Shown: positions 12,501 to 18,500 of the stretch, in pieces | How positions within the stretch are numbered: the stretch's first letter is position 1 | Layout: the number at the start of each line of letters is the position of its first letter | DNA from: Bolinopsis microptera | Lineage: Eukaryota > Ctenophora > Tentaculata > Lobata > Bolinopsidae | NCBI RefSeq assembly: GCF_026151205.1 | Contig: NC_087078.1 | Location: 7,394,675 to 7,458,674, forward strand | Length of the DNA: 64,000 nucleotides | Direction: 5' to 3' | Notes under the pieces: model-generated | Databases searched by the model: none | Told to the model about the DNA's origin: nothing | What the model saw: the letters and a program-made list of their open reading frames with translations, nothing else | Position numbers and translations under genes: made by a program

Positions 12501-15500
12501 GAAACAGGATACCATGAATCTGTATAAGTTTGAAGTAGTTTCATTCTACGTTTAATATTATTATTGGGTCGTTTACGTTAAAGTTATATTTGGCCATTTT
12601 ATAGCCTCCCCTCAAAAAGACCACAATTACTCAATATGTAAAAGAAGAATATCCTACAATCTCTGTTTTATTCAAGTGAACTTGAATATCTTGCAACTTG
12701 TTAAGACCACATTAAAATGCTTTGATATAGACTTTACATCATGCCGGATGTACCCTCAAGAACTTATAGAAATCATGTATCTAAAAGAGAATGATGTAGA
12801 GGGGGATGATTAGTAGTTAGAAATCGGATCGATGTAGCAGAAAAAAGCAAACCCTAGCAAAGAGTGCAAGTGTTTTTATAACCAAATTCAGACAATTGTC
12901 TCGCCCATCGCCTGACATTTTAGGGTTTTTAACCCCTATCACCCATGAACCGGGTGCTTCCAGATTTATACCGAAACCCATATTGGAAGAAAACACCCGA
13001 TCTACAACATCAAAGCACATTTTAATAACTTGAGCACAAAACTGGTCAAAAAAAGACCAAAGTTGTTGCCCAATTTGGTATTTTTCCTCACGCGTGTAGT
13101 CAAAATGACCGATTTTTGTCTATATCTTAACAAATAAGCATTAAAGGGCTTATATTGCTCTATAAGTTGTATATAAATGTGATGTTTGCGCTCATTTTAA
13201 GCTAAAATTCAAGTCTCTACGATCTTCCTAGTTCCAGTTACCAAAATTCAGTCCCATTTTTGGTTCGCTGAGCCAAAATACAGTTTTTTGTCAATATCTA
13301 TAAAACAAAGCACTGAAGACCTTATGTTGCTTCATAAGTTGTATATAATTATGGCTATTGCGGTAATTTTAAGCTAAAATTGAAGTCTCTATGACCTTCA
13401 GGAGCCGAAATACGAAAATCTCGTATACGCGACTGAGGGTAATTTAGAAAATTTGCCCTGTAGGGTTATCTCTAGCGAAACAAATTGTGCACCCACACGA
13501 TTTTGGTTAAGAATGACCTAACAAACAACCCTGTGTTGTCAGAAATAGTACACATCGAAGTGCACACTCAACTATTCCCTGCTACTAGAGTAATAATGTA
13601 TACATGAAATTTTATTATTCGAGCTGGAATTATTATTGTAGGATGACTTACTTCGAATATTTCCTTTACTTCCAGGTTTTCCTTTTGTTTTCTTGACTGG
13701 TTGTCTCTGTAATTGTCCGTTCAAATGATCGATCAACTTCAGATATTCATTCTCTTTCTGCTTGAACTTCATCTGATCGAGAAGGATTTGTGCTTGTAGC
13801 TCCTCCAGATTCTTAGTCTGACTGTTGTATCTGGAGGCCATGTTGTTGTATTTCTCTGTCTCCTCATTCAGATCTAAATATGGGAAACATTAAATTTAAA
13901 GAAAATTTTCAGTATTATAATTTATAACCATCAGGATTAACGATTATTCCAAGGTGCACTGTTCTAGTTGTTTTCTTCCACTCATTAAGTCAAATATAGC
14001 TCACACACCTTGACGGAGCTGGAATGATAGAGTCGACTGTCTGGTATTCTCATCGTTCAATCTGGAAATCTCCATCTCCATTTTCTTGGACTTGGCAACC
14101 TGGATAATGCAATCAGTTATTTATAGAATATGTAATTGGATAAGCGGAGTTAGTCGTGAACAAGGGTCCGCAAACACACATGATGCGATATGATCCCGGA
14201 ACTTTTGGCGCCGGTATAATCTAACTTGATATAGGAGGCACATTTAATATCCAATGCGCCGCCGCGCGCGCGCGAGAGTGTTATTTTGCGCGAACTGAAT
14301 GAAACTTTCTATAAGTAAATGTTTTCGCGCCTTCCACTAACGTCCACTCTGATCCTAAGCCCCAGAAGGACTTTCGACAAATCTGTTCCAAATAAAAAGA
14401 TCGAAAATCGAGTGTTTTAGTGAATAACTTAGAATATAATTATGATTTTCTCAAGATCTGACTGATAGATTTTCTTAAAACTTTCCAGATAGTTACATGG
14501 CTATATGACGGATAATGTGTGACAGTTTGGGAGAATTTCTATATGCCAAAATGGAGATATGACTTCAAACACAAGAAAATATCTTCACATTGGCGGTTTC
14601 TAGCGGAACACAGGCATATATTTCGAGATCTGAATGATAGAATTTCTTTAAACTTTCCAGATAGTTACATGTCTATAAGACAGATAATCTGAGCGAGTTT
14701 GGGTGAATTTTTATGTGCCAAATTTGAGATATGACTTCAAACACAAGAAAATATCTCAAATTGGTGCCTTCTAGCGGAACGCAGGCATATATTTCGAGAT
14801 CTGAATGATAGAATTTCTTTAAACTTTCCAGATAGTTTCATAGCTATAAGACAGATAATCTGAGCGAGTTTGGGCGAATTTCTATGCACCAAACCTGAGA
14901 TATGACTTCAAACACATGAAATTATCTCAAATTGGCTCATTTCTAGCGGAACGCAGGCATATATTTCGAGATCTGAATAATAAAATTTCTTTAAACTTTC
15001 CAGATAGTTACATAGCTATAAGACGGATAATCTGAGCGAGTTTGGGCGAATTTCTATGTGCCAAACTTGAGATATGACTTCAAACACATGAAAACATCTC
15101 CAATTGGCGGTTTCGGAACGATATTTGACGAAAGTCGATTATCTCGAGATCTGAATGATAGAATTTCTTTAAACTTTTCAGATAGTTATATGGCTATAAG
15201 ACGGATAATCTGAGCGAGTTTGGGCGAATTTCTATGTGCCAAACTTGAGATATGACTTCAAAAACAAGAAAATATCTCAAATTGGCCCGTTCTAGCGGAA
15301 CGCAGGCATATATGCAGGAGGAGGTGTAGGGGGAAGAGGACTCAGGAGGAGGTGGACTTAGGAGGAGCAGGACTGAGGAGAAGGAGGAGGAGGAGAAGAA
15401 AGAGGTGGAGGAGGAAGAGGACTGAGGAGGATGTGGAGTGTGGACTCAGGAGGAGGAGGACTCAGGAGGAGGAGGAGGAGGAGGATGAGGACTGAGGAGG

Positions 15501-18500
15501 ACTGAGGAAGAGGAGGAGGAGGAAGTGGAGGAGGAAGAGGACTCAGGAGGAGGAGGACTCAGGAGGAGGAGGACTCAGGAGGAGGAGGACTCAGGAGGAA
15601 AAAAACTCAGGAGGAGGATGAGGACACAGGAGGAGGACTCAGGAGGAGGAGGAGGACTCAGGAGGAGGAGGAAGATGAGGATGAGGAGGACTGAGGAGGA
15701 AAAGAAGGACTGAGGAGGAGGAGGAGGACTGAGGAGGAGGAGGAGGAGGGGATGAGGGGGAGGAGGGGGAGGAGGAGGGGAAGACGACTGATGAGGAGCC
15801 AGGAGGAGGAGAAGGACTGAGGAGGAGGAGGAGGACTGAGGAGGATGAGGAGGAGGAAGAGAAGGAGGAGAAGGAGGTGGACGAGGAGGAGTGAGGACTG
15901 ATGAGAAGGAGGAGGACTGACGAGGAGGAGGACTGAGGAGGAGGAGGAGGAAGGGATGAGGGGGACGAGGGAGAGGAGGAGGAGGAGGAGGAGGTGGGGG
16001 AGGAGGACTCAGGGGGACTCAGGAGGAGGAGGATTCATGAGGAGGAAGATGAATTTGAGGATTGAGGAGGAGGACTGAGGAGGAAAAGGAGAAGGAGGAC
16101 TGAAGAGGAGGATGAGGAGGGGAAGAGGGGGAAGAGGAGGAGATTATCCGTCTTATAGCCATGTAACTATCTGGAAAGTTTAAAGAAATTCTATCATTCA
16201 GATCTCGAAATAAATGCCTGCGTTCCGCTAGAAGGCTCCAATTTGAGATATTTTCTTGTGTTTGAAGTCATATCTCAGGTTTGGCACATATAAATTCGCC
16301 CAAACTCGCTCAGATTATCCGTCTTATAGCTATGAAACTATCTGGAAAGTTTAAACAAATTCCATCATTCAGATCTCGAAATATATGCCTGCGTTCCGCT
16401 AGAACGGGCGAATTTGAGATATTTTCTTGTGTTTGAAGTCATATCTCAACTTTGGCACATAGAAATTCGCCCAACCTCGCTCAGATTATCCGTTTTATAG
16501 CTATGGAACTATTTGGAAAGTTTAAAGAAATTCTATCATTCAGATCTCGAAATAAATGCCTGCGTTCCGCTAGAACGCAACAATTTGAGATAATTTCTTG
16601 TGTTTGAAGTCATATAATCCTAAGTTTGGCACATAGAAATTCGCCCAAACTCGCTCAGATTATCCGTCTTATAGCCATGTAACTATCTGGAAAGTTTAAA
16701 GAAATTTTATCATTCAGATCTCGAAATAAATGCCTGCGTTCCGCTAGAAGGCTCCAATTTGAGATATTTTCTTGTGTTTGAAGTCATATCTTAAGTTTGG
16801 CACATAGAAATTCGCTCAAACTCGCTCAGATTATCCGTCTTATAGCCATGTAACTATCTGGAAAGTTTAAAGAAATTCTATCATTCAGATCTCGAAATAA
16901 ATGCCTGCGTTCCGCTAGAACGCGCCAATTTGAGATATTTTCTTGTGTTTGAAGTCATATCTTAAGTTTGGCACATAGAAATTCGCCCAAACTCGCTCAG
17001 ATTATCCGTCTTATAGCCATGTAACTATCTGGAAAGTTTAAAGAAATTCTATCATTCAGAACTTGAGATAATCGACTTTCGTCAAATATTGTTCGGAAAC
17101 CGCCAATTTGAGATAATTTCATGTGTTTGAAGTCATATCTCAGGTTTGGCACATAGAAATTCACCCAAACTCGCTCAGAGTATCCGTCTTATAGCTATGA
17201 AACTATCTGGAAAGTTTAAACAAATTCCATCATTCAGATCTCGAAATATATGCCTGCGTTCCGCTAGAACGGGCGAATTTGAGATATTTTCTTGTGTTTG
17301 AAGTGATATCTCAAGTTTGGCACATAGAAATTCGCCCAAACTCGCTCAGATTATCCGTCTTATAGCTATGGAACTATTTGGAAAGTTTAAAATAATTCTA
17401 TCATTCAGATCTCGAAATAAATGCCTGCGTTCCGCTAGAACGCGCCAATTTGAGATATTTTCTTGTGTTTGAAGTCATATTTTAAGTTTGGCACATAGAA
17501 ATTCGCCCAAACTCGCTCAGATTATCCGTCTTATAGCCATGTAACTATCTGGAAAGTTTAAAGAAATTCTATCATTCAGATCTCGAAATATATGCCTGCG
17601 TTCCGCTAGAACGCGCCAATTTGAGATATTTTCTTGTGTTTGAAGTCATATCTTAAGTTTGGCACATAGAAATTCGCTCAAACTTGCTCAGATTATCCGT
17701 CTTATAGCCATGTAACTATCTGGAAAGTTTAAAGAAATTCTATCATTCAGATCTCGAGATAATCGACTTTCGTCAAATATCGTTCCGCGGAACATACGGA
17801 ACGGAAAGTCCAACTCCTAAGCCCGCGGGGATTTCTGGATAGCTCATCGCCGAGCAACGTACCTCTGCAAAATTGAGAGAATTTGAATTGAAAATACACT
17901 CTGTACATACCTCATTTTCGAAGTTTTTGTTAAGCTTTTCTGTATTGTGTTTGTAAAGGCCACATTTTGCCTCCAATTCCTCAATTTCAACGTTGAGTTG
18001 CTCGTTCTTGTTTCGCTCAAGATGTTTTTCATCTTTGAGCTGGGCTACGTCCCGCTTCAAGTTATCAATCTGCAGCAATGATAAAACTTGTGTATTATCA
18101 GGAACATTCAATGAAAGAATTTAAATTTGTAATCAAACGTTATGTTAGACTAAGACTGAACTCGTCAATAAACAAAACATATGTTCAGGTCTCTACAGAC
18201 ACCCACACCTTGACTCGCAAAACAGAACCAGAGAAAAACAGGAAAACCAAGAGAAAGAAAGTGACCCTACCTGTTCCTTATACTTGTTGTTAACTTCGCT
18301 GCTCTTTCCCGTTGATTGGGCAAGTTTCTCGCGCAAGTTGGTAGCCTCGTGCGTATACCTCGTCTTCTCATTCTCCAGCTGATCTATTAGGATTTTATAA
18401 CCGCTCACTGTGTTGCTGAGCTGTTCTTCGTGTTGTTGTGCTGTCTCCAGGGATCCCTAGTTAACAGTTAACAGTTAGCATTAGTTAACAGTTAACAGTT

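What the first reader, a model, noticed from the sequence alone, without database searches (positions are those of the whole stretch)
14440..17790. Two opposing arrays of a ~172 bp satellite around an 830 bp purine tract, inside a citron intron
About 5 forward and 10 reverse monomers face each other across a nearly pure GGA-type tract. The whole forms a giant imperfect palindrome with a triplex-prone centre, in an intron the cell must transcribe. The ordered layout suggests an inverted duplication that spread from the tract, or a composite mobile unit. I know of no described element with this architecture.
Basis: seen in the sequence. Interest (0 to 1): 0.72.

Follow-up and report, generated by a model that had tools for sequence, protein, structure and literature searches.

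The report
Satellite-armed foldback transposon in citron intron
The two facing satellite arrays and the purine tract look like one piece of mobile DNA, a foldback-type transposon sitting in an intron; the striking layout is real, but it resembles elements already described in flies and nematodes.

Summary
In detail: five forward monomers of ~172 bp (14451-15313), a purine-rich tract of 827 bp, then nine full and one cut reverse monomers (16141-17757), in an intron of a citron-like minus-strand gene. A perfect 10-bp direct repeat, TCCTAAGCCC, brackets the structure (14353-14362, 17815-17824) and occurs nowhere else in the 64 kb; just inside it lies an inverted 8-mer, GGACTTTC/GAAAGTCC. Random flank pairs show the like in 23 of about 400,000 draws (strict) or 136 of 200,000 (loose). 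Both arms start at the same monomer phase and carry the same variant tail on monomer 4. I read it as one non-autonomous foldback DNA transposon of about 3.45 kb whose inverted arms are satellite-like tandem repeats, as in Drosophila Tetris, some Galileo and nematode Tm1; the purine tract is its loop. The 10-bp duplication fits a Mutator-type transposase, but no genome was held, so a second copy, a transposase and an empty site are untested. 'No described element with this architecture' is wrong for the arms; the purine loop is the unusual part. Interest is modest.

The parts
14353..14362 (.). left copy of 10-bp direct repeat TCCTAAGCCC (putative target site duplication)
   Evidence: two occurrences in the 64-kb window, none of its reverse complement
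14363..14450 (+). left terminal domain: CAGAA, then GGACTTTCGACAAATCTGTTCC, which resembles the reverse complement of the array's variant tail
   Evidence: local score 16, 0 of 3000 random window stretches as good
14451..15313 (+). forward tandem array, 5 monomers (F1-F5); F4 carries the variant tail
15115..15143 (+). variant tail at the end of F4 (GGAACGATATTTGACGAAAGTCGATTATC)
   Evidence: a 31-nt stretch over it is repeated exactly in the right terminal domain
15314..16140 (+). purine-rich tract (GGA type, 16-bp sub-period): middle domain / loop
16141..17757 (-). reverse tandem array, R10 (68 bp, cut) up to R1; R4 carries the variant tail; R1-R5 and R6-R10 look like a duplicated five-monomer block
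   Evidence: R1-R5 start against R6-R10: 95.1% over 752 aligned positions
17758..17814 (-). right terminal domain; reads GTTGGACTTTCCGTTCCGTATGTTCCGCGGAACG... inward; weak hairpin
   Evidence: (z -2.18 for 65 nt, -1.49 for 90 nt)
17815..17824 (.). right copy of 10-bp direct repeat TCCTAAGCCC (putative target site duplication)
14102..17917 (-). host intron of citron-like gene, 3816 bp, of which 3452 bp is the proposed element
   Evidence: splice-site reading by eye; C1 and CNH segments

Best explanation
The stretch 14363-17814 is one insertion of a non-autonomous DNA transposon of foldback type. Its ends are short inverted sequences flanked by a 10-bp target site duplication. Its long inverted arms are built of ~171-bp tandem monomers: an arm of five monomers with a variant fourth, doubled to nearly ten on the right side. 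Its middle is an expanded purine-rich simple repeat. A transposase supplied in trans, most likely of the Mutator superfamily judging by the duplication length, would cut and paste it; the monomers may serve as repeated secondary binding sites, as reported for Galileo. Array length then changes by unequal exchange. Shown here: arrays, common phase, variant tail in both arms, direct repeat, inverted 8-mer. Inferred: transposition itself, the Mutator link, the binding-site role, and the origin of the purine loop by microsatellite expansion.
For: 10-bp direct repeat plus inverted 8-mer just inside it at both outer ends; matched by 23 of about 400,000 random flank pairs under the strict criterion and 136 of 200,000 under a looser one. 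Both arms begin at monomer position 1 after GATT(A/T)TCTC, and in both the variant tail closes monomer 4, 693 and 691 bp from the start of monomer 1. The left terminus resembles the inverted variant tail (0 of 3000 controls). Without the element and one copy of the duplication the intron would be 354 bp. Tetris: ~220-bp tandem repeats in long inverted ends, variable middle without coding capacity, duplications of 8-10 bp. Tm1: duplications of 8-10 bp (45 of 53 complete elements, as the paper states), asymmetric outer motifs followed by GGA, the two ends of one element 93.15% identical on average; here F1-F5 against R1-R5 averages 92.6% and the outermost 5 and 3 bp also differ.
Against: Left and right terminal domains as wholes are only weakly alike (155 of 3000 random stretches score as well), and aligning the arms with their termini gives 89.3% over 918 positions with the termini poorly matched. 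The distance from direct repeat to inverted 8-mer differs (5 and 3 bp). A 10-bp direct repeat alone occurs in 5545 of about 400,000 random flank pairs, and the test was designed after the repeat was seen. Mirrored monomer order rests on the variant tail: over the first 140 alignment columns the observed order ranks 28 of 120 (mean 92.6%) and the opposite order does as well (92.5%, rank 32); F1-F4 against R6-R9 ranks 9 and 13 of 24. No second copy, transposase or empty site could be examined: no whole genome is held, and pattern scans of collections that do not cover the host found nothing.
Confidence: 0.7

Rival explanations
1. Local inverted duplication: a short satellite array in the intron was copied in reverse across a purine tract (template switch or hairpin-primed repair), without transposition.
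For: The arms are unequal (5 and 9.4 monomers) and the tract cuts them at different phases. The terminal domains outside the arrays are weakly alike as wholes. Purine tracts can stall polymerases (general knowledge).
Against: Both outer ends start at the same monomer phase and are bracketed by a direct repeat plus inverted 8-mer, which a random breakpoint would not be expected to give.
Confidence: 0.17
2. Two Helitron/Helentron-like elements of the bivalve kind (satellite array plus microsatellite) in opposite orientation, sharing one microsatellite.
For: In oyster Helitrons a microsatellite is followed by a short array of satellite monomers, several of 164-166 bp (passages of PMC8268682). The right terminus can form a weak hairpin.
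Against: Helitrons make no target site duplication (general knowledge); here a 10-bp direct repeat is present. It needs two coordinated insertions.
Confidence: 0.07
3. Assembly artefact, such as a chimeric or fold-back read placed across the tract.
For: Purine tracts and inverted repeats are hard to assemble (general knowledge); no reads could be examined.
Against: Paired monomers of the two arms average 92.6% identity and the arms differ in copy number; an artefactual fold-back would be nearly identical. It would not explain the direct repeat and ends.
Confidence: 0.05

Closest known systems
Tetris (Drosophila virilis, foldback transposon; PMC4079207, part 1 of the text and passages seen)
   Same: Long inverted ends with ~220-bp satellite-like tandem repeats, variable middle without coding capacity, duplications of 8-10 bp, and a 37-bp stretch shared by terminal domain and tandem repeats.
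   Different: Tetris has a flanking domain of up to 866 bp outside the repeats and an inner domain; here 57-88 bp outside and no inner domain seen. No sequence comparison with Tetris was made. The passages that I saw mention no purine middle.
Galileo (Drosophila, P superfamily; passages of PMC3573991, abstract of PMC3688188)
   Same: Long inverted ends; in subfamily F of D. mojavensis internal tandem repeats of ~210 bp whose number differs between the two ends; transposase binding sites found in the tandem repeats.
   Different: Most Galileo copies have 7-bp duplications; here 10 bp. No sequence comparison was made.
Tm1 (Meloidogyne, Mutator/Foldback; passages and part of the Discussion of PMC3169594)
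   Same: Duplications of 8-10 bp, short asymmetric motifs outside the inverted repeat, then GGA, then tandem repeats.
   Different: Tm1 tandem repeats are 13-15 bp, not ~171 bp.
Bivalve Helitrons and pearl-family MITEs with satellite arrays (passages of PMC8268682 and PMC5139131)
   Same: Mobile element holding a microsatellite-like segment and a short array of monomers of similar size (164-166 bp in oyster).
   Different: In the passages seen, a single array rather than two facing ones; Helitrons leave no target site duplication (general knowledge).

Membership tests
Foldback-type transposon (structural class) | long inverted arms made largely of tandem repeats | tested here: met
Foldback-type transposon (structural class) | middle domain separating the arms | tested here: met
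   827-bp purine-rich tract
Foldback-type transposon (structural class) | target site duplication | tested here: met
   10 bp, perfect, with an inverted 8-mer just inside; post-hoc test
Foldback-type transposon (structural class) | matching terminal domains at both outer ends | tested here: inconclusive
   8-mer exact, but whole terminal domains matched as well by 155 of 3000 controls
Foldback-type transposon (structural class) | further copies at other sites in the genome | not testable with these tools
   no genome held; no match in bacterial/archaeal and viral collections, which do not cover the host
Mutator superfamily | target site duplication of 8-10 bp, commonly 9 | tested here: met
   10 bp; range as given for Tm1 and Tetris
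Mutator superfamily | related element encoding a Mutator-like transposase | not testable with these tools
   no genome held; none among the 23 window ORFs given to Pfam, which is a part of the window only
P superfamily (Galileo) | target site duplication of 7 bp (Galileo; 8 bp for P elements is recalled) | tested here: not met
   10 bp
Helitron/Helentron | no target site duplication (recalled) | tested here: not met
   10-bp direct repeat at the ends
Helitron/Helentron | relative encoding Rep/helicase; conserved 3' end across copies | not testable with these tools
   no genome held

The most novel reading that the evidence does not exclude
A foldback transposon family whose loop is always a long purine tract, kept because it helps the arms fold back or helps the element be copied, so that the family spreads inverted satellite arrays around purine cores through the host genome.
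Probability: 0.08. Interest if true: 0.55.

Novelty: new member of a known kind. Interest (0 to 1): 0.3.

Why it matters
If right, it adds another case, in an animal that I could not name, of a foldback transposon carrying satellite monomers, the route proposed in the Tetris paper by which transposons seed satellite DNA. It would also show an intron whose transcript could form a long imperfect RNA hairpin. It does not open a new class.

Tried and rejected
Searching the host genome: none is held. Exact patterns from conserved monomer stretches in bacterial/archaeal genomes and viral contigs: 0 matches each; the host is a eukaryote, so this says little. Monomer matches elsewhere in the window: at most 29 nt, E 0.009 or worse for the arrays, 17 nt at E 0.008 for the tract. 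Relation to the neighbouring inverted repeat 10775-13592: one 29-nt match at 86%, E 0.006; arm against monomer within the random range (77, 88, 146 and 39 of 150 controls as good in the four comparisons); rejected. Relation of the terminal domains to the normal monomer: not significant (right 924, left 189, and in the other orientation 690 and 2121 of 3000 controls as good), although the 8-mer GCGGAACG, counted on both strands, occurs 12 times in the element and nowhere else in the window. A terminal hairpin as a general feature: right end z -2.18 and -1.49, left end 0.80 and -0.03; not relied on. Mirrored order of normal monomers between the two arms: not supported apart from the variant tail. 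A solved-structure search of one neighbouring ORF gave one weak hit (synembryn-B, E 0.041), not used. Literature: seven searches; among the rows listed (15 of 69, 12 of 22, all rows in the others) no title or shown abstract start described a purine-cored foldback element; apart from the papers named here they were seen as listings only.

Full report
Observation. TRF finds a 172-bp array at 14454-15313 (5.0 copies) and a 171-bp array at 16141-17762 (9.4 copies), with a 3/16-bp purine-rich array between them. Splitting into monomers gives F1-F5 (14451-15313) and, on the other strand, R1-R9 plus a 68-bp R10 (17757 down to 16141). Facing stretches are 89-97% complementary in the 25 of 43 pairs shown, the longest being 373 nt at 94%. 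The tract is 827 bp (15314-16140). Measured over 829 bp it is 86.6% purine with a longest pure run of 31 nt; its longest mirror repeat has 30-nt arms but is interrupted by CTC.

Ends. The direct repeat TCCTAAGCCC stands at 14353-14362 and 17815-17824 and nowhere else in the window; inside it GGACTTTC (14368) and GAAAGTCC (17804) face each other, each found once in the window. With 100-nt flanks, a direct repeat of 10 or more plus an inverted repeat of 8 or more within 10 nt inside it occurs in 23 of about 400,000 random pairs, and the direct repeat alone in 5545 (draws closer than 200 nt were skipped, so the true number is slightly below 400,000). With 150-nt flanks and looser limits (direct repeat 7 or more, inverted repeat 6 or more, summed length at least the observed 18) it occurs in 136 of 200,000. 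The main tandem arrays of the window, and also the neighbouring inverted repeat, were left out of the controls; the criterion was chosen after the repeat had been seen. The terminal domains as wholes are weakly alike (155 of 3000 controls as good); the left one resembles the inverted variant tail strongly (0 of 3000), and the right one contains 31 nt of that tail exactly.

Arms. F4 and R4 share a variant tail not found in the other monomers; it closes monomer 4 in both arms, 693 and 691 bp from the start of monomer 1. R1-R4 match R6-R9 in order (rank 1 of 24, also over the first 140 alignment columns), and R1 to the start of R5 against R6-R10 is 95.1% identical over 752 positions, so the right arm seems to hold a doubled five-monomer block, although R9 lacks the variant tail. 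F1-F5 against R1-R5 averages 92.6% and ranks 4 of 120 orders, but over the first 140 columns, without the variant tail, only 28 of 120, no better than the opposite order (rank 32); F1-F4 against R6-R9 ranks 9 and 13 of 24. The match of the arms therefore rests on the variant tail, the common phase and the ends.

Setting. The element lies in a minus-strand intron, 14102-17917, with splice-like ends read by eye. Minus-strand ORFs downstream match C1 (E 6.6e-05, 0.031) and CNH (E 6.8e-05, 0.0014, 0.034), all below the curated cut-offs; the ORFs over the two flanking exons and the next one look like coiled coil by eye but gave no citron-specific match (the exon at 14012-14101 was not scanned). The transcript thus carries the pyrimidine strand of the tract, and its arms could pair as a long imperfect double-stranded RNA (inference).

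Mechanism. A foldback-type, non-autonomous DNA transposon explains arms, common phase, ends and direct repeat at once. In Galileo, repeats inside the long ends hold transposase binding sites (abstract of PMC3688188), and repeat number differs between the two ends (passages of PMC3573991). In Tetris the ~220-bp repeats vary in number and are proposed to have seed satellite arrays; duplications are 8-10 bp and the authors suggest the Mutator superfamily (part 1 of the text and passages of PMC4079207). Tm1 adds asymmetric outer motifs followed by GGA (passages and part 1 of the Discussion of PMC3169594). The purine loop is most simply a microsatellite expanded in the middle (inference); oyster Helitrons also carry a microsatellite beside monomers of similar size (passages of PMC8268682), and pearl-family elements of bivalves carry short satellite-like arrays (passages of PMC5139131).

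Limits. The species is unknown, no genome is held, and scans of other collections found nothing. Copies elsewhere, the transposase, the empty site and the reads remain untested.

Noticed in passing
10775-13592: A second large inverted repeat in what looks like the next intron: arms 10775-11740 and 12624-13592, 98.7% identical over 969 positions, around a middle of 883 bp; ends read TA|CTCTAGTAGC...GCTACTAGAG|TA; each arm holds two diverged subrepeats 171 bp apart (80% over 115 nt). No convincing sequence relation to the satellite element.
   Followed up: partly
24851-27852: Array of 7.4 copies of a 405-bp unit, 99% matches, with 21-bp subrepeats.
   Followed up: no
34437-35369: Array of 17.3 copies of a 54-bp unit, 94% matches, inside a 372-aa open frame on the + strand; the unit length is a multiple of three.
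   Followed up: no
54461-57678: Remains of a non-LTR retrotransposon on the minus strand: reverse transcriptase (RVT_1, E 1.2e-27) and endonuclease domains, and a PHD-finger match below cut-off (E 0.0035) in an overlapping frame; 52772-53899 may continue it, by eye.
   Followed up: no
44182-45396, 48045-49765, 57478-60868: Protein-like frames that resemble each other by eye; stretches of 284 and 196 nt between 44-45 kb and 58-60 kb are 86% and 82% alike in inverted orientation. No Pfam match above cut-off in the six ORFs scanned; perhaps another retroelement.
   Followed up: no
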